Shown here one piece after another: positions 6,283-13,151 of a stretch of 64,000 bases of DNA (the first letter of the stretch is position 1; each line of letters opens with the position of its first letter). The stretch is from Dermabacter sp. (GTDB lineage Bacteria; Actinomycetota; Actinomycetes; Actinomycetales; Dermabacteraceae), in NCBI GenBank assembly GCA_030538475.1, contig JAUNTX010000006.1:3593-67592 (forward strand), read 5' to 3'. The notes below the pieces were generated by a model that was not told the DNA's origin, ran no database searches, and was given only the letters and a program-made list of their open reading frames with translations. The translations under genes were made by a program, and so were the position numbers.

Positions 6283-6962
6283 TGGGCGCGCCGGATGCGG
6301 CAGCGAGCGCGGCAGAGGGCGCAGCGGCCCCTGCCGTGATGCTGCGCGCGGAAGGCGTGAGCCTCGGCTACGGCGCCACCACGATCGTCGATGCCCTCAC
6401 GGTGAGCGTCCCGCGAGGGCAGATCCTCGCGCTGACGGGGGAGAACGGGAGCGGGAAGTCCACGCTGCTGCGCGGCCTCGCCGGTCTGCAGCCGATGGCG
6501 TGTGCGGCCTATGAGCTGGCCGGGGCGAGCGATTCGGTGAACTCGGCCCGGCATCGCCGCCTCACGTTCGCGATCATGGATCATCACGCGTGGCTCAGGG
6601 ACCTCACCCTTGCCGATCACCTCCATGCCGTCCACGCCCCGGGCGATTCGGCGATGGCGCCCGGTGAGGCGCTCGAGGTGCTGGGCCTCGGCGCGCTCGC
6701 GGCGCGGCCCCCGCATGCGCTGAGTTCCGGGCAGCGCCAGCGGGCGGCCCTCGCGCTCGCGTGTGTGCGGCCGTGGAGCGTGCTGTTTCTTGATGAGCCG
6801 GAGCAGAGGCTCGATGCCCGCTACGGGCCCGTGGTGGCCGGTGTTCTGCGGCGCCTCGTGGGCACGGGGAGCAGGGCGATTGTGATGGCCACGCATGCGC
6901 CGGGTTTTCGTGCCGAGTGCGGCGCGCGGGAGTTCCCGATGCCGGGTGGGGGCGAGGGGTAG
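6282..6962 (+). CDS. ABC transporter ATP-binding protein
   Basis: This stand-alone ATPase of about 226 residues has Walker A GENGSGKST, signature LSSGQRQR and Walker B VLFLDEPEQRLD. The ATG at 6282 overlaps the preceding stop by one base (TGATG). An in-frame upstream ATG (6252) would sit inside the exporter gene and is less likely. The protein ends just before the GTG of a 468-residue membrane protein, so the two probably form one transporter. The Q-loop and switch regions are short compared with importer ATPases, which fits an ABC-2-like exporter or an uncharacterised actinobacterial type. The substrate is unknown. Confidence 0.85.
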   Translation: MGAPDAAASAAEGAAAPAVMLRAEGVSLGYGATTIVDALTVSVPRGQILALTGENGSGKSTLLRGLAGLQPMACAAYELAGASDSVNSARHRRLTFAIMDHHAWLRDLTLADHLHAVHAPGDSAMAPGEALEVLGLGALAARPPHALSSGQRQRAALALACVRPWSVLFLDEPEQRLDARYGPVVAGVLRRLVGTGSRAIVMATHAPGFRAECGAREFPMPGGGEG

Positions 6963-6963
6963 C

Positions 6964-8370
6964 GTGCGGGCCGACGGGCAGGCGCGGGCGGGCGGCGGCA
7001 TGGAGGCCGACGGGAGTGCGCGTGCCGACGGGGGAGCGCACGGTTCGGGGCATGTCGCGGAAACGGTGTGGATGGCGGTGGTGAGCGCCGCGGTGCTGCT
7101 CGGGGTGTGGGGCACCACTGCGTTTGCGGTGGCGGGCAGCCTGGTCGCGGAGCTGGGTGGCGCGCCGACCGCGGTGGGCGCCCTCGTGGTCGCCGCGGGA
7201 GCGCTAAGCCTTGCCGCGCAGGCAGTGGTGACGTATCACCTAGGGCCGCGTCGAGCTTCGCCCGCGCGCCTGCTCGTCACGGGCGGGCCCGAACACCCGC
7301 GCAGGCAGATCGTGGTGGCCGTCGGCGCTGCCGCGGCTGTGGCGGTGCTCGTGGGGTGCGTGATGGTGGGCTTTGCCGCTCACCTCGGCGCCGTGACCCC
7401 GGTCGTGATCGGGGCCCTCGCCGTGGGGTGCGCGGGGGCGGTGACGCTTCCGCTTCTTGCCGCGTGGGTGCAGCGTGGCGGGCAGGAGTTGGTGCCGCGC
7501 TGGCGGCTGATCGCTGCCGACGCGCGGGCAAGCGCCCTCACGATGAGCGTCGCGAGCCTGAATACTGACGCCATGCGCGCCACCGGGGAACTGGGGCGCG
7601 CGTCGAGGCCCCGGCGGCCGCTCACTCCGCCCGGCGGGCCGGGCGTGCGCCTGATGATCCTCACGTGTGTGCGCGCCAGTCAGGCGCGCCTTCCGCTCAT
7701 GCTGTCCGTGGCCGCCACCGGCCCGCTCGTGGTGCTGCTGGGCAGCGTGCGCCTGGCGCTCGTCGCGATGGTGTGTGCTGCGGTGGTGGCTGCGGCGTCG
7801 TGGGCCCGGCCCGTGATGGATGCGGCAGGTTCTGCGCATCTTCGGCGCCTGTTGGGTGGCGCTCGCGGCACCGCGGCCCTGCCGGTGGCCGTCGCTGCTG
7901 TGTGCGCAGGGCAGCTTCCCCTGCTCGTGGGGCTCGTCGCCACTGTGGGGCTCGCCGCGTGGCTCGTGCCCGGCGGCGGCGGGCCGTGGGGGCCGATGGC
8001 GAGTGAGCAGTGTCCGTTGACGCTTGCCGCCTGGGTAGCGGTGCTGGGGGCCGCCCACGTGTGCGGTGTGCTGGGCAGGACCGCGGGTGTGCTCGCAGCG
8101 CAGCGCATGGGGGTGCGGGTGATGACCACGAACGAATTTGGGCCGGTGCCGCTGGATGTGCTGCAGCGCCTTAGCGCCGGTTGGGTGGGGCCCGTGATCG
8201 CGGCGGTGCTGCTCGTGCAGGGCTTCGCCGCGCTGGCGCTCGCCGTGGGCATCGGCGCGGCGCTCTACAGTGCGTGGGCATGGCGGTCGGAAGTCATGGA
8301 GCAGGAGCGAGTGCGCGAGCTGGCCGTGCAGGATGTTGCCGTTCAAGGCGCGGTGAGGGACTGGGAGTGA
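6964..8370 (+). CDS. Large membrane protein, probable permease partner of the adjacent ATPase
   Basis: This protein of about 468 residues has roughly ten hydrophobic segments of about 20 residues rich in Ala, Val, Leu and Gly, with an Ala/Gly/Arg-rich N-terminus. I chose the GTG at 6964, two bases after the previous stop; an ATG at 6895 would require a 68-nt overlap with the ATPase gene. No recognised catalytic motif is visible. The coupling to an ABC ATPase points to a permease made of two fused units. It could belong to an uncharacterised actinobacterial family such as DUF6297, but this was not checked. The gene is followed four bases later by a methyltransferase gene. Confidence 0.6.
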   Translation: MRADGQARAGGGMEADGSARADGGAHGSGHVAETVWMAVVSAAVLLGVWGTTAFAVAGSLVAELGGAPTAVGALVVAAGALSLAAQAVVTYHLGPRRASPARLLVTGGPEHPRRQIVVAVGAAAAVAVLVGCVMVGFAAHLGAVTPVVIGALAVGCAGAVTLPLLAAWVQRGGQELVPRWRLIAADARASALTMSVASLNTDAMRATGELGRASRPRRPLTPPGGPGVRLMILTCVRASQARLPLMLSVAATGPLVVLLGSVRLALVAMVCAAVVAAASWARPVMDAAGSAHLRRLLGGARGTAALPVAVAAVCAGQLPLLVGLVATVGLAAWLVPGGGGPWGPMASEQCPLTLAAWVAVLGAAHVCGVLGRTAGVLAAQRMGVRVMTTNEFGPVPLDVLQRLSAGWVGPVIAAVLLVQGFAALALAVGIGAALYSAWAWRSEVMEQERVRELAVQDVAVQGAVRDWE

Positions 8371-8374
8371 ACCG

Positions 8375-9277
8375 ATGAATGGGACGAAGCCCGAAGATGA
8401 GGCGACACCGCCAGTGCCGCCAGTGCCGCCTGTGTCGCGTGCGTCGCGGCCCAGGTTCGCCACGCGTGAGCGCCGCGACGAGTTGGCGAAGGCGTATGAG
8501 GCAGGTGGCGCGCAGTATGAGGAGCTGCGGCCCGGATACCCCGCGGCGGTGGTGGATCGGATGCTTGCTGCCGCCGGGGCGCGTGAGGGAGATACCGCGA
8601 TTGATGTGGGCGCGGGCACGGGCAAGCTCTCCCGGGCGCTTGCCGCGCGCGGGATGAACGTGACGGCGGTGGATCCGAGCGCGGCCATGCTCGATGTGGC
8701 GGCCCATCCGCGCTATAGCGGCGAGAATCCCGGGCACGGCTCCGTGACGCTGCACGAGGGAACGGCGGAACACACGGGGCTACCGGCCCATGGAGCGCGG
8801 CTGGTCACGGCGGCGCAGGCGTGGCATTGGTTCGATGCCGAGGCCGCGACCAGGGAGGTGCTGCGCCTGCTGGCACCCGGAACGGCGGAAAGGCCTCCGG
8901 GGGTGCTCGCGCTCGTGTGGAACACGCTCGATGTGAGCATCCCGTGGGTGCACCGCTATTCCCGGATCGCGCACGCGGGCGATGTGTTGCGCGAGGATTT
9001 CACTCCTGCCACGGGGCCGGGCCTCGAGATGATCGACAGGTTGTCGCTGCGCTGGGAGGATCACCGCACCACGGACGAACTGGTGAACCTGGCACGCACC
9101 CGCAGCTACGTCATCACTGCCACCGAGGATCGGCGGCGCCGAGTGCTCGAGAATCTGGACTGGTACCTCCACGACCACCTGGGCCACACACCCGGGACCT
9201 CCATCCCCATGGTTTACCGCTGTGACCTGGTTGTTTACGCTCCAAAAGCCAATGCTGGCTGGGGTTCGCAGGGCTGA
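8375..9277 (+). CDS. Class I SAM-dependent methyltransferase
   Basis: This 300-residue soluble enzyme has a methyltransferase-11-type Rossmann fold. Motif I reads AIDVGAGTGKLS (about residue 70), followed by the acidic loop VTAVDPSAAML and motif III-like segments around residues 120-140 (AQAWHWFD). The N-terminal 35 residues are Pro/Thr-rich and precede a short R-D-E-L-A-K-A-Y-E stretch typical of small-molecule methyltransferases. A GGGAGTGA ribosome binding site lies before the ATG. It sits four bases behind the membrane protein gene, so it probably closes the operon. The substrate is not predictable. Confidence 0.85.
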   Translation: MNGTKPEDEATPPVPPVPPVSRASRPRFATRERRDELAKAYEAGGAQYEELRPGYPAAVVDRMLAAAGAREGDTAIDVGAGTGKLSRALAARGMNVTAVDPSAAMLDVAAHPRYSGENPGHGSVTLHEGTAEHTGLPAHGARLVTAAQAWHWFDAEAATREVLRLLAPGTAERPPGVLALVWNTLDVSIPWVHRYSRIAHAGDVLREDFTPATGPGLEMIDRLSLRWEDHRTTDELVNLARTRSYVITATEDRRRRVLENLDWYLHDHLGHTPGTSIPMVYRCDLVVYAPKANAGWGSQG

Positions 9278-9443
9278 AAATCACTGCCCGGAGGTCTTCC
9301 CTGGGAGCATGCGCGAAGAAACTTTGAAGCAATATTTGCGGATCCGTGGCGGCGAGGGCAGGCGCAGGTAAGCTTGATCACGAGCACGCAGACACCTACC
9401 GCGCGACCCTCGTGAAGAGCGCCGATCCAGACAAGGACGTTTG

Positions 9444-9554
9444 ATGATGAAGCATACGAGAGCTCGTCGCGAGGCAGAGCGCTTGGAGGGTTGGTTCGCC
9501 GCAGAGGTGGCCGATCGCAACTTGGGTGCCAAATGCCAGTTGGGCGGTAGCTGA
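9444..9554 (+). CDS. Possible 36-residue peptide gene ahead of the low-GC ABC module
   Basis: A 36-codon ORF begins M-M-K-H-T-R-A-R-R-E-A-E-R, is basic in its first half, and ends with A-K-C-Q-L-G-G-S, with a single Cys near the C-terminus. It has a good ribosome binding site (AAGGA, six bases before the ATG). It ends three bases before the start of the first membrane protein of the ABC module, which itself has no clear ribosome binding site, so translational coupling is plausible. It could be a leader ORF, a secreted or modified peptide precursor, or a remnant of a decayed gene. The preceding 150 bases hold other short open fragments in two frames. No family is recognised. Confidence 0.35.
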   Translation: MMKHTRARREAERLEGWFAAEVADRNLGAKCQLGGS

Positions 9555-9557
9555 ACT

Positions 9558-10400
9558 ATGCGTTCAAAGAGTACTCAAAGTGCTGGACTAATGCGCTGGG
9601 GCTGGCTCGCGATCTGTGTGGTCGCGGGCCTCGCCCTCGGCGCGTCAGCATCTCTTGGAGTCTATTTAGAACGAAGTTCCTTTGCCAACTGGGGATTTGC
9701 CGATGTGTACATCACCGCCTTTGACTATAAAAGTATCGTTACCCAGGGTCTCCCGGTTGTTATTGGCCTTTTTGTAGCGGCACCACTAGCGGAGCTGGCG
9801 ACCGGAGGGGCATTCCGCTCCATGTGGAACCGCGTTGATAGAAGGCAGTACCTCATCTCGTCAATGGTGAAAGCGGCAGTCTCCGGATTCGTCGTGGCGT
9901 TTTCGGCGATGATTACCATTTCGCTACTTGTGTGGGCCATGACTGCATGGGGATCGGGCTTTATCTTTGCCGTGGACGCAGACCACATCGAAGGATACTA
10001 TTCACCGCAAATTGAAGCGGCTGCGTGGGATCGCCTCGGAGGCATTCCTGCTCTCTTCGCGCAAGTGTCTCCCGGAATATCACTTTTCGTGATGTCCCTA
10101 TGGGTCGGATTCTCTGGTGCTATCTTTGGCCTCTTCGCTGCAGTACTAGCGCTCCTAGTCCCCTGGCCGCGATTGGCTTTCCTCGGGCCAGTCATATGGT
10201 TTCAATTTTGCTTGCTTGCCACGGGCTCCATGCTCTCGCCTATTGGCTGGGTCAGTCCGCACGATGCCCTTTATCCGTGGAACCTTTCCTTGCTCCTTAT
10301 TCCCGGGCGTGTTGTCGGGCTTGCGATGTACACTGCTCCACTCATCGTGGGAATATGGTTTATCTTTCGGCGAACTGAACGCATAGCGAGTATGCAATGA
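9558..10400 (+). CDS. ABC-2-like membrane protein of the low-GC module
   Basis: This 280-residue protein has six hydrophobic helices and short loops, the size and layout of an ABC-2-type permease subunit. A helical segment with A-A-P-L-A-E-L-A-T-G-G precedes a basic cytoplasmic loop (M-W-N-R-V-D-R-R-Q-Y), the pattern seen in BcrB-like permeases. Base composition is clearly lower in GC than the flanks (27 of 60 bases in the line at 9721, against 43 of 60 at 8641). The stop overlaps the next ATG (ATGA), so the three genes of this module are translationally coupled. The likely role is export of, or immunity to, a peptide or small molecule, by analogy only. Confidence 0.65.
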   Translation: MRSKSTQSAGLMRWGWLAICVVAGLALGASASLGVYLERSSFANWGFADVYITAFDYKSIVTQGLPVVIGLFVAAPLAELATGGAFRSMWNRVDRRQYLISSMVKAAVSGFVVAFSAMITISLLVWAMTAWGSGFIFAVDADHIEGYYSPQIEAAAWDRLGGIPALFAQVSPGISLFVMSLWVGFSGAIFGLFAAVLALLVPWPRLAFLGPVIWFQFCLLATGSMLSPIGWVSPHDALYPWNLSLLLIPGRVVGLAMYTAPLIVGIWFIFRRTERIASMQ

Positions 10401-11902
10401 GCAACCGCGGGGCCGCGTCCTGGATTGCCGCCATGGGGTTCCTGGTGGTCGCCGGGGCCGTTGATGCGGCAGGGCTTGAGAAGTGGACCCTCATCGCAGC
10501 CGAGCGAGCGGCACTGGACTCGGTTTCTTACTTGGAGCGTTTAGCGTTCTTTCTATCCGGTACCGCAGGAAGAGTCGTTCCGATTCTTGCCGCCATCATC
10601 TTCGTGTTCTCAGTGCCGAATCCCGAGAATGCCATCCTCCTGCCACGGCGCCAGAACCTTACCGTTTCGCTTCTACGCATGTCTATCTCGATGATTCCTA
10701 GGATCTTCACGGCATGTGCTGCGTGGGCATTGGGTGGGGTGCTGTACTACCTGGGTAGCCCCAGCGGGTCCAGCTGGGGGCCAAACCTCGGAATTGATAA
10801 TCTCCGAGACTTCGCCTGGGATGGCATCGGTTTTGAGAGTGCACAAGTATCACCCATCGCCTTAATTTTCATGTCTGTCGCGAGTGCCGGCGCTTACATC
10901 GTCACCTTTACCATCGTGTGCTGCTTCGCGGCACTCGTGCTCTCCCAGCGGTGGGCGCAAGCTCTGACTGTCCTTGTAGCGCTGCTTTCGTGGCTTTCCA
11001 TCGAGTTTCCGGGAGTTCTACTGTGGGTTTCTCCAAAGTTATGGAGTGGGACTCCTGCCACGATCATAGATTTGCCATCGGCGCTGTCTTATTCTCTCGT
11101 TGTCGTGGCGGTGGGAGTTGCTGTTCTGCTCGTGGCCGTCGTCGTGGATGCCGTACGCGCCGGGAGGTTACTGCCCGAAGGTGTTACTATCCTGGCGATT
11201 GTGGGTGGGGCGTACATGCTGGCCACGTTGCTCTTCCCGTACCTGAGCTTCTCGCAGAGCGTGATGGCCGCGCTCGAATGGGCCATGGGTGGCGGCCGAG
11301 TGGGATTGGAAAGCCCCAAGGAGCTCTCACTTACCGAGTTGGGCTTCTTGGCAGCCCAGTGCCTCGTGGCAATCCCGGCTGTCTTTGCATACTTCTATGC
11401 TGAGTCGATCCGCGATCTGGGACCTGGAATGTGGGTGCGCGGGGGTGCGCAGTGGCGGCTCGTCACCCAGTACTTCCCGTCGATCCTGCGAGTGAGCGGC
11501 CTCGTGCTCGGCGTGCTCGTCGGTGTGGTGGTGCTCGGGCTGCTCGGGGTACCGGCCGCGATCACGAACCTCACCTGGCCAGAACTGGCTGATGTGGCGT
11601 GGGTGCTGATCTTGACATTCGGCCAGATGGTGTTCGGTGCGACCCTCGTGATGGTGGTGCGAGCCCACACGAACGGCCCGTTTCCCGCTGTGGCCATCGG
11701 AATTATCTTGTTTGCACTGCCAATGTTTGTGCAGACCCGTTTCGTGCCCAGCGGCCAAGGGCATCCAATGTATGTAGCGCAGTCTTCGACTGTTGAGAAC
11801 CTGATGAGTGCTGGCGTTCTGCTGGTCAGTATCGCCATGGCGCTTGCGCTTGCTGTGTTGTTCCCCCGTCTTCGTTTCCGATCCTTGGAGGATGCCTCAT
11901 GA
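10397..11902 (+). CDS. Large membrane protein of the low-GC module, apparently two permease units fused
   Basis: This 501-residue protein has about 12 hydrophobic segments. The first half (to about residue 240) resembles an ABC-2 permease unit of six helices, and the second half (about 260-495) has the same size and layout, with a basic loop (G-G-A-Q-W-R-L) before the last set of helices. Together with the preceding 280-residue protein and the following ATPase, it suggests a transporter with unequal membrane subunits. The start overlaps the upstream stop by 4 nt, and the end overlaps the ATPase start by 4 nt. GC content rises toward the 3' half. No family name could be assigned with confidence. 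Confidence 0.65.
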   Translation: MSNRGAASWIAAMGFLVVAGAVDAAGLEKWTLIAAERAALDSVSYLERLAFFLSGTAGRVVPILAAIIFVFSVPNPENAILLPRRQNLTVSLLRMSISMIPRIFTACAAWALGGVLYYLGSPSGSSWGPNLGIDNLRDFAWDGIGFESAQVSPIALIFMSVASAGAYIVTFTIVCCFAALVLSQRWAQALTVLVALLSWLSIEFPGVLLWVSPKLWSGTPATIIDLPSALSYSLVVVAVGVAVLLVAVVVDAVRAGRLLPEGVTILAIVGGAYMLATLLFPYLSFSQSVMAALEWAMGGGRVGLESPKELSLTELGFLAAQCLVAIPAVFAYFYAESIRDLGPGMWVRGGAQWRLVTQYFPSILRVSGLVLGVLVGVVVLGLLGVPAAITNLTWPELADVAWVLILTFGQMVFGATLVMVVRAHTNGPFPAVAIGIILFALPMFVQTRFVPSGQGHPMYVAQSSTVENLMSAGVLLVSIAMALALAVLFPRLRFRSLEDAS

Positions 11903-12555
11903 CCGTGGCAACGTTCACAAACGTTAGTAAGACCCTGAAGAAGCGAACGCTGTTCTCGGGAGTGAATCTGGAGATCGAGGAAGGCGTCACCTACGCGGTG
12001 GAAGGCCCGAACGGCACCGGAAAGTCCGTGTTCCTCCGGCTACTGTGCCTCATGATGGAGCCCAGCAGCGGGACTGTCACCATTGACCCGCAGTACCTCT
12101 CCGACAACGGGAAGTTCCCGGAACAGTTCGGCGCGATCATCGACCGCCCCGGATTCATCCCCACGAAGAGCGGGTTCGGGAACCTGAAGTTCCTGGCATC
12201 ATTCCGGAAGGTCATTGGTGACGAGGCCATCAAGGACACCATGCAGCGAGTGGGGCTGGATCCGTCCTTGCGCACGCTCGTGCACCGGTACTCCCTCGGG
12301 ATGCGGCAACGACTGGCACTCGCGCAAGCGATCATGGAAGACCAGAAGGTGCTCGTGCTCGACGAGCCGTTCAATGCGCTGGACCACAGCGGCGTGGAGA
12401 TGGCGTACGGCGTGATTCGCGACGCGCAAGCGGCAGGGAAAACCGTGGTGTTTACCTCGCATGATCGCGAGCACGTCAAGGACTTGGCCCAGGTGAGGTT
12501 ACTCCTGGATGCCGGAACGATTCGTGAGGTCGAATACGAAGCCCCGGCTGCCTAG
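11899..12555 (+). CDS. ABC transporter ATP-binding protein, BcrA-like
   Basis: This 218-residue ATPase has Walker A EGPNGTGKSV, signature YSLGMRQRLALAQA and Walker B VLVLDEPFNALD, with the switch His in VFTSHDREH. The SLGMRQR signature is typical of ATPases that drive ABC-2 exporters in antibiotic resistance or bacteriocin immunity (BcrA/LptB-like drug branch). It is translationally coupled to the upstream membrane protein (ATGA). Its TAG stop is interlocked with the stop of the convergent DUF6318 gene through the four bases CTAG. The substrate is unknown. Confidence 0.9.
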   Translation: MTVATFTNVSKTLKKRTLFSGVNLEIEEGVTYAVEGPNGTGKSVFLRLLCLMMEPSSGTVTIDPQYLSDNGKFPEQFGAIIDRPGFIPTKSGFGNLKFLASFRKVIGDEAIKDTMQRVGLDPSLRTLVHRYSLGMRQRLALAQAIMEDQKVLVLDEPFNALDHSGVEMAYGVIRDAQAAGKTVVFTSHDREHVKDLAQVRLLLDAGTIREVEYEAPAA

Positions 12556-13151
12556 CTCACGGTCATCGAGGTGATGAGCCAGCGCCCACCCTCGAAGCGC
12601 AGGTTTACCGTGAACTGGCCCGAAGATGGCTCCCGGGAGACAGCTTCGCGCGTGGGGTCATCCACCAGGGTTGCCGCTGCCTCATGGAACGTGGCGGCAA
12701 CACTCGCCGTATCGCCCTCGATGCTCACCTGCTGATCACTCAGCGTGATCTCGCCGCCCACGATCCAGCCGCCCTGGGCATGCAGACCCTCCGCATTCGC
12801 GGAAAAAGCCGTGCACTGTTCACACTCGGGAGCGCTCAACTCACGCCACTGCGACGTATCACCCGTCGCAATCATGTAGGCATACGTGGCGAACAGATAA
12901 TCGGTCGTGGCTAGCGCCCCCGCCTCCGTCGGCTCACCCATCGCCGCAAAAGCCGCCGCATCAGGCGGTGTTGTCGCCGTCGGCTGAGGCTGCGTGCCCG
13001 GATCCACCGTGGGCCGCACATCCTGCGCCGAATCCGGCACCACCTGCTCCTCACTCCCACCGGATAGCTGCCCGAGGCCCACGAGGCCCATGGGAATGAC
13101 GAGGGCCAAGGCCACGAGAAGGATGACGACGCGCTGGGTGGTTCTGCTCAC
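12552..13151 (-). CDS. Membrane-anchored DUF6318-like protein
   Basis: This 199-residue protein has an N-terminal hydrophobic helix (about residues 8-30), a Pro/Thr-rich linker, and an extracellular domain with a C-E-Q-C pair near residue 113 after T-G-D-T. That layout is typical of actinobacterial DUF6318 proteins. It is probably a membrane-anchored or exported protein on the outer face of the membrane. The GTG start is preceded by TAGGGT six bases upstream with no ribosome binding site, suggesting a leaderless transcript. The function of the family is unknown; the fold is reminiscent of NTF2-like or Mce-associated domains. Confidence 0.65.
   Translation of the reverse strand: MSRTTQRVVILLVALALVIPMGLVGLGQLSGGSEEQVVPDSAQDVRPTVDPGTQPQPTATTPPDAAAFAAMGEPTEAGALATTDYLFATYAYMIATGDTSQWRELSAPECEQCTAFSANAEGLHAQGGWIVGGEITLSDQQVSIEGDTASVAATFHEAAATLVDDPTREAVSREPSSGQFTVNLRFEGGRWLITSMTVS

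What the first reader, a model, noticed from the sequence alone, without database searches (positions are those of the whole stretch)
9278..12555. Low-GC ABC module with a peptide-sized ORF in front
The region drops to about 45 percent GC in places, against about 70 percent outside. Its three transporter genes are joined by 4-nt overlaps, and a 36-codon ORF with a good ribosome binding site ends three bases before the first. The layout fits a horizontally acquired peptide export, immunity or resistance cassette not matched to a known family.
Basis: partly seen in the sequence, partly recalled or inferred. Interest (0 to 1): 0.55.

Follow-up and report, generated by a model that had tools for sequence, protein, structure and literature searches.

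The report
Acquired orphan ABC peptide-resistance pump
A three-gene membrane pump was inserted between two ordinary genes of an actinobacterium; in about half of its close relatives the same kind of pump sits beside a gene for a small secreted, bacteriocin-like protein, which this copy lacks, and the short reading frame in front of it is probably not a real gene.

Summary
Checked: three genes (9558-10400, 10397-11902, 11899-12555) joined by 4-nt overlaps; a 36-codon ORF (9444-9554) ending 3 nt before them; lowest GC of the 64-kb window at each of five scales (44% in the worst 100 bp, 58% over 3.3 kb, median 69%). Insertion is supported: in 3 of 3 other genomes of the genus the flanking methyltransferase and DUF6318 genes converge with 9 bp between stops; here 3.27 kb lies between. 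The module is an ABC exporter: a roughly 6-TM permease, a roughly 12-TM protein with two profile-similar halves, and an ATPase nearest the lantibiotic-protection class. It belongs to a family without Pfam or NCBIfam models in Actinomycetota and Bacillota, also on plasmids. In 9 of 18 members of its ATPase clade a gene for a signal-peptide-bearing ~105-residue beta-sandwich protein lies nearby; 3 of 18 show remnants. The window genome has none. Best reading: an orphan immunity/resistance exporter for a secreted bacteriocin-like protein or another surface-acting peptide. The 36-codon ORF has no homolog, an ambiguous codon signal and ordinary length; a peptide role is unsupported. Interest lies in the uncharacterised secreted-protein/pump family more than in this copy.

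The parts
9278..12551 (.). Inserted low-GC segment between two genes that are adjacent in congeners (ends approximate, judged by eye: left about 9240-9278, right about 12540-12552)
9444..9554 (+). 36-codon ORF of unproven translation; SD-like AAGGA at 9433-9437
9558..10400 (+). P0001, 280-aa permease of a family whose members have about 6 TM
10397..11902 (+). P0002, 501-aa membrane protein with about 12 long helices; two profile-similar halves
11899..12555 (+). P0003, ABC ATPase (218 aa); its stop codon overlaps the stop of the convergent DUF6318 gene
8375..9277 (+). Flanking methyltransferase gene, neighbour of the DUF6318 gene in congeners
12552..13151 (-). Flanking DUF6318 gene

Best explanation
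The module is a horizontally acquired three-gene ABC exporter that sits as one insertion between two genes that are neighbours in the rest of the genus. Shown by sequence: an ATPase with the ABC motifs, a permease and a longer membrane protein in one overlapping operon. Shown by comparison: it belongs to a family in Actinomycetota and Bacillota, also on plasmids, in which half of the window's ATPase clade has nearby a gene for a small secreted beta-sandwich protein, and some members keep only remnants of it; this genome has none. Inferred: the secreted protein is a bacteriocin exported by Sec; the ABC pump is the producer's immunity, working like LanFEG/CprABC by taking the agent off the outer face of the membrane or protecting its target; the window's copy is an orphan resistance pump kept by a non-producer. 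The 36-codon ORF is most likely not a functional gene, at most a translated leader that couples expression of the first permease.
For: Insertion: flanking genes are convergent with 9 bp between stops in 3 of 3 congeners and 24-67 bp apart between match ends in four loci of three other genera; GC minimum of the window. Exporter: ABC_tran E 2.8e-25; best NCBIfam model the lantibiotic-protection ATPase TIGR03740, 124.5 bits, under its 309.75 cut-off. Permease nature: the two halves of the P0002 family align with each other (hhalign E 6e-7), the P0001 family with the N-half (E 1.3e-5); the C-half of a low-confidence model lines up best with PmtCD (Z 13.9, 3.0 A over 202 residues), then NosDFY and ABCG5/8. 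Family: the window ATPase lies in an 18-row clade (100/95), inside a 9-row set of actinobacterial rows (98/97). Partner: the secreted gene lies in the fetched stretch of 9 of the 18 rows (seven of these nine already by a 4-row profile that did not contain them); three further Dermabacteraceae genomes, outside that tree, have all four genes. Loss: a broken partner gene beside an intact module in D. hominis L121 (BLAST pieces), and weaker traces in L087 (E 0.035) and L099 (by eye); no partner in the window genome at E up to 0.1. Precedents: Lcn972, a bacteriocin with putative ABC immunity genes (PMC4055356, passages); mediterrocin, predicted Sec-dependent, with an ABC gene in its cluster (PMC12345188, passages); LanFEG-type pumps without bacteriocin genes, CprABC giving resistance in C. 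difficile (PMC4239024, passages).
Against: No activity of the secreted protein or pump was tested in anything I found. In 5 of 18 clade rows, the window among them, neither partner nor remnant is seen, and a sixth (L125) cannot be judged. In L058, L092 and L094 the partner gene is on the opposite strand, so not in the pump operon. P0002 has no BLAST similarity to its congeneric counterpart, and the window is a long branch. Streptococcin B inhibits strains with scbBC but a non-producing locus, and the authors say that the B and C functions are unverified (PMC11796350, passages and section 12), so a pump left behind need not protect.
Confidence: 0.55

Rival explanations
1. The pump is a resistance exporter for peptides made by other organisms (LanFEG/BcrAB-like), never tied to its own secreted partner in this lineage.
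For: ATPase closest to the lantibiotic-protection model; partnerless modules follow sensor genes: L095 (histidine kinase) and L098 (response regulator) in the window's own clade, L097 and L155 outside it (L102 and L118 look alike by eye).
Against: Half of the window's clade has the partner and three rows show remnants; no sensor gene was recognised directly beside the window's module.
Confidence: 0.27
2. The 36-codon ORF encodes a real peptide (leaderless bacteriocin, signal or pump cargo) that has replaced the secreted protein, and the pump exports it.
For: Position 3 nt before the first permease and SD-like AAGGA; codon positions ordered GC3>GC1>GC2; in several relatives the partner gene sits in the same place; place plus SD reached in only 288 of 5000 shuffles.
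Against: No match better than E 0.056 in 57 other genomes or E 8 in 72,556 plasmids; codon log-odds -0.053, at about the 90th percentile of wrong frames and under 25 of 26 true-frame chunks, with two reverse frames of the same stretch scoring higher; no family hit; no signal peptide by eye.
Confidence: 0.08
3. The pump serves a housekeeping substrate (lipid, cell-wall precursor) and the low GC reflects old permease genes, not transfer.
For: The ATPase GC3 (0.81) equals the window mean.
Against: Absent at this place in 3 of 3 congeners; modules of this kind are patchy in the genus, with a P0001-type match in G000, G001, G003 and none in G002; grouping with the congeneric modules rejected, p-AU 0.004, though the group was chosen after a first tree and branches are long.
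Confidence: 0.08

Closest known systems
LanFEG-type lantibiotic immunity exporters (NisFEG, CprABC)
   Same: One ATPase and two different membrane proteins; ATPase nearest to TIGR03740; also found without a bacteriocin gene
   Different: Second membrane protein is about 500 aa with two similar halves; ATPase far below the family cut-off; no Pfam or NCBIfam family for the permeases
Lactococcin 972-type clusters (Lcn972 orf2-orf3, streptococcin B, mediterrocin)
   Same: In relatives: small beta-rich protein with a signal peptide beside putative ABC immunity genes
   Different: No Lactococcin_972 match over cut-off in 7 genomes including the window's nor in the partner proteins scanned; different membrane part; the window copy lacks the secreted gene
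PmtCD of Staphylococcus (phenol-soluble modulin exporter; substrate from recall)
   Same: C-half of the P0002 model lines up best with PmtCD (Z 13.9)
   Different: A shared arrangement only, on a model with mean pLDDT 59.6
Uncharacterised modules of Priestia plasmids, Clavibacter, Brachybacterium-type genomes and Dermabacter
   Same: Same gene order: short permease, long permease, ATPase
   Different: Many encode the secreted partner; the window copy does not

Membership tests
ABC exporter with ABC-2-like permeases | ATPase with ABC_tran domain in an operon with membrane subunits | tested here: met
   PF00005 E 2.8e-25; Walker A, SLGM signature, LDEP and H-loop read by eye
ABC exporter with ABC-2-like permeases | Permease fold of the ABC-2 (type V) kind | tested here: inconclusive
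   top rows PmtCD, NosDFY, ABCG5/8, but pLDDT 59.6 and 0 Foldseek matches with E up to 0.001
LanFEG lantibiotic protection | ATPase above the curated cut-off of TIGR03740 | tested here: not met
   124.5 bits against 309.75
LanFEG lantibiotic protection | Lantibiotic genes nearby or proven immunity | not tested
   lanthipeptide genes were not sought; function needs experiment
Lactococcin 972 clusters | Secreted protein of the Lactococcin_972 model | tested here: not met
   PF09683, 0 of 7 genomes over cut-off, best E in the window genome 0.235, far from the module
Lactococcin 972 clusters | Seven-TM DUF1430 membrane protein | tested here: inconclusive
   no such Pfam hit for P0001 or P0002 at E up to 10; that the library holds the model was not checked
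Unnamed short-permease/long-permease/ATPase module family | ATPase inside the 18-row clade | tested here: met
   support 100/95 (78 of the 80 fetched loci plus three rows)
Unnamed short-permease/long-permease/ATPase module family | Short and long permease genes directly upstream in that order | tested here: met
Unnamed short-permease/long-permease/ATPase module family | Secreted partner gene nearby (9 of 18 rows, so not strictly defining) | tested here: not met

The most novel reading that the evidence does not exclude
The window holds the cheater form of an undescribed two-part antagonism system: a Sec-secreted beta-sandwich bacteriocin (C-terminus like SGxWRSN) with a dedicated pump built from three related permease units and one ATPase, carried on plasmids and chromosomes of Bacillota and Actinomycetota, from which non-producers repeatedly keep the pump while the secreted gene decays.
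Probability: 0.42. Interest if true: 0.6.

Novelty: new variant of a known kind. Interest (0 to 1): 0.4.

Why it matters
If right, it adds an uncharacterised family of secreted bacteriocin-like proteins and their pumps to the few known Sec-secreted bacteriocins, shared by actinobacteria and bacilli, and gives natural examples (intact, decaying and lost partner within one bacterial family) for testing whether orphan pumps protect non-producers.

Tried and rejected
Homology for the 36-codon ORF: best outside match E 0.056 in 57 other genomes; plasmids E 8 at best. RNA element in 9100-9800: no Rfam match at E up to 1; leader fold z-score 0.31. Promoter and terminator scans: 3 and 3 sites against 1.1 and 3.0 expected; the promoter-like sites are all on the minus strand. 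Mobile-element ends: no convincing terminal repeats; a GGCTG seen by eye at both ends is too short to count.

Order-level matches: of P0002, L005 looks by eye like an antiporter gene, L003/L004 were opened and showed no recognisable ABC module, L006 was not opened; of P0001, L010 looks like a P-type ATPase gene, L011 was not opened. P0002 as a single query misses the sister modules, so its 4 of 396 (own genome included) says little about spread. PADLOC hits of the ATPase are taken as generic ATPase similarity. PDB matches of the secreted profile to two designed immunoglobulin-like proteins (E 1.4e-4 and 2.1e-4) cover 21 residues and are taken as chance. Fold matches of the secreted model (Foldseek best E 1.9e-3; VIA-align GOLD domain Z 8.9, carbohydrate-binding modules, PirA) are middling and show no function; lactococcin 972 is not among the 50 rows shown in either list. 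A pattern scan with P0001 in genome contigs confirmed nothing; P0001 and P0002 had no plasmid match. The concatenated tree does not resolve the window's place (46/62; long branches meet). Eight paper searches listed no title or abstract start that names this module; only five papers were opened: passages of PMC4055356, PMC10598978, PMC4239024, PMC11796350 (with section 12) and PMC12345188 (with its abstract).
Full report
OBSERVATION. The window is G000:C4:3593-67592 of a 2.53-Mb genome. The three ORFs, their 4-nt overlaps and the 36-codon ORF that ends 3 nt before them are as described. The segment is the GC minimum of the window at each of five scales: 44% over 100 bp, 58.3% over 3278 bp, medians 69%.

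INSERTION. The genome shares its genus with G001-G003. G003 contig 2 (319,830 bp) has the same length as a contig titled Dermabacter hominis NBRC 106157, and the module lies at the same place in both, so this is the Dermabacter group. The flanking methyltransferase (8375-9277) and DUF6318 (12552-13151) genes are convergent with 9 bp between stop codons in 3 of 3 congeners (read). In the family, 44 of 47 genomes have a DUF6318 match and the 30 best loci were fetched. Of the 29 besides the window's own, 14 show the methyltransferase inside the 1.5-kb flank, 13 of them convergent; gaps between match ends are 21 bp in the three congeners, 24, 34, 49 and 67 bp in four loci of three other genera, and 189 to 1411 bp in the other seven; 15 do not show it within the flank and say nothing. 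In the 14 the gap is too small for the 3.3-kb module. The methyltransferase is about nine residues longer at its end than in congeners (by eye), and the ATPase stop overlaps the DUF6318 stop, as for an insertion at the junction. No clear terminal repeat was found.

WHAT THE GENES ARE. P0003 is an ABC ATPase; its best NCBIfam model is the lantibiotic-protection ATPase, well below cut-off. P0001 and P0002 hit no Pfam or NCBIfam family but for three chance-level entries of P0001 (E 0.13 to 5.8). Congeners G001 and G003 carry a distant module of the same gene order elsewhere: ATPase 43% identical over 211 residues, P0001 30% over 150 residues, E 2e-7; P0002 shows no BLAST similarity and is placed in its family by position, length and multiple alignment. 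G002 has no match to the P0001 profile. Hydropathy gives 6 TM for the short and 9-12 for the long protein in Priestia, G001 and G003. Profile comparison finds the two halves of the P0002 family alike (E 6e-7, 10% identity) and the P0001 family like the N-half (E 1.3e-5); membrane proteins can match so by make-up alone. The AlphaFold model of P0002 is weak (mean pLDDT 59.6) and gives 0 Foldseek matches with E up to 0.001. The five best VIA-align rows are ABC exporters (PmtCD Z 13.9, NosDFY, ABCG5/8), the next four one mycobacterial efflux pump; the tool warns that helical models can reach such Z without kinship. I take P0002 as two fused ABC-2-like units, so three units with P0001: inferred.

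FAMILY AND PARTNER. A tree of 81 ATPases (78 of the 80 loci, the window, G001, Priestia) puts the window in an 18-row clade (100/95), within nine actinobacterial rows (98/97). A gene for a small protein with a signal peptide (by eye) was seen in G001 and Priestia and aligned. Profiles of these proteins find it in the fetched stretch of 9 of the 18 rows (L024, L058, L086, L088, L090, L091, L092, L093, L094); the larger 16-row profile contains these sequences, but seven of the nine were found first by a 4-row profile without them. In L058, L092 and L094 it is on the opposite strand. Three rows show remnants: L121 by BLAST pieces (two at combined E 1e-9), L087 at E 0.035, L099 by eye only. Five show neither (window, L089, L095, L098, L114); L125 is a 3.6-kb contig that cannot be judged. 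Outside the clade L128 and L132 have it. Of six plasmid records with the long permease, five have the secreted gene; in one of these, Planococcus, the ATPase is annotated in two pieces. Of 58 related genomes four have a strong partner match: G001, G021, G027, G028; the last three carry all four genes. The partner hits no Pfam or NCBIfam family except chance-level entries and no genome of seven, the window's included, has a Lactococcin_972 match over cut-off. It is predicted as an eight-strand beta sandwich, pLDDT at least 90 for 85 of 126 residues. The window genome has no partner match at E up to 0.1, and nothing in 9000-12700 scores with the larger profile (best 3.4 bits).

REGULATION. Partnerless modules L095 and L098 of the window's own clade follow a histidine kinase or a response regulator, as do L097 and L155 outside it. 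This favours resistance to outside agents over a lost partner in such cases; after checking it I lowered the best reading from 0.60 to 0.55, the novel case from 0.45 to 0.42 and raised the rival to 0.27.

DESCENT. Holding the window with the two Dermabacter modules as one clade is rejected (p-AU 0.004), holding it with all six rows of the bacterial family is not (0.45). The groups were chosen after a first tree and the window's branch is long, so this only weakly supports a separate acquisition.

THE SHORT ORF. No homolog, no family; codon log-odds -0.053 per codon against 0.137 (sd 0.094) for 26 true-frame chunks and -0.255 (sd 0.165) for wrong frames; two reverse frames of the same stretch score higher. 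Length is ordinary for chance; place plus SD-like motif arises in 288 of 5000 shuffles. Translation is untested; I hold it as probably not a gene.

MECHANISM. Shown: insertion, operon, family, frequent partner, absence of the partner here. Inferred: the partner is a bacteriocin exported by Sec; the pump is immunity, as proposed for Lcn972 orf2-orf3 (PMC4055356, passages); an ABC gene also lies in the mediterrocin cluster, whose product is predicted Sec-dependent (PMC12345188, abstract and passages); this copy is an orphan, as LanFEG-type pumps can be (PMC4239024, passages). Caution: streptococcin B inhibits strains with the D39-type scbBC locus, and B and C functions are unverified there (PMC11796350, passages and section 12).

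NOVELTY. The kind, an ABC pump tied to a bacteriocin-like secreted protein, is known; the permease make-up and the partner have no Pfam or NCBIfam model, and eight paper searches listed nothing that names them. Hence a new variant of a known kind.

Noticed in passing
L121:3513-3677 (Dermabacter hominis): Secreted-partner gene reduced to its signal peptide, a short piece and the last residues beside an intact pump module, while G001 keeps it whole
   Followed up: yes
L110:3123-3509 and the stretch upstream of the ATPase in L096: Other small secreted proteins precede related ABC modules in Bacillota (L110 a weak profile match, L096 by eye), so the partner may be one branch of a larger set
   Followed up: no
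window:3292-6264 (-) and 6895-8370 (+): Two long ORFs (990 and 491 aa) near the module without a Pfam hit at E up to 0.1; also no NCBIfam hit at the limits used
   Followed up: no
window:13840-17145 (+): 1101-aa ORF with an MsbA-like ABC exporter from about residue 476 on; the part before it is unassigned and the start may be wrong
   Followed up: no
G000 contigs C4, C6, C7, C9: The window genome has 9 DUF6318-like matches against 2 to 3 in each of the three congeners, perhaps a lineage-specific expansion
   Followed up: no
L095, L097, L098, L155: Related modules directly follow histidine-kinase or response-regulator genes instead of a secreted-protein gene
   Followed up: partly
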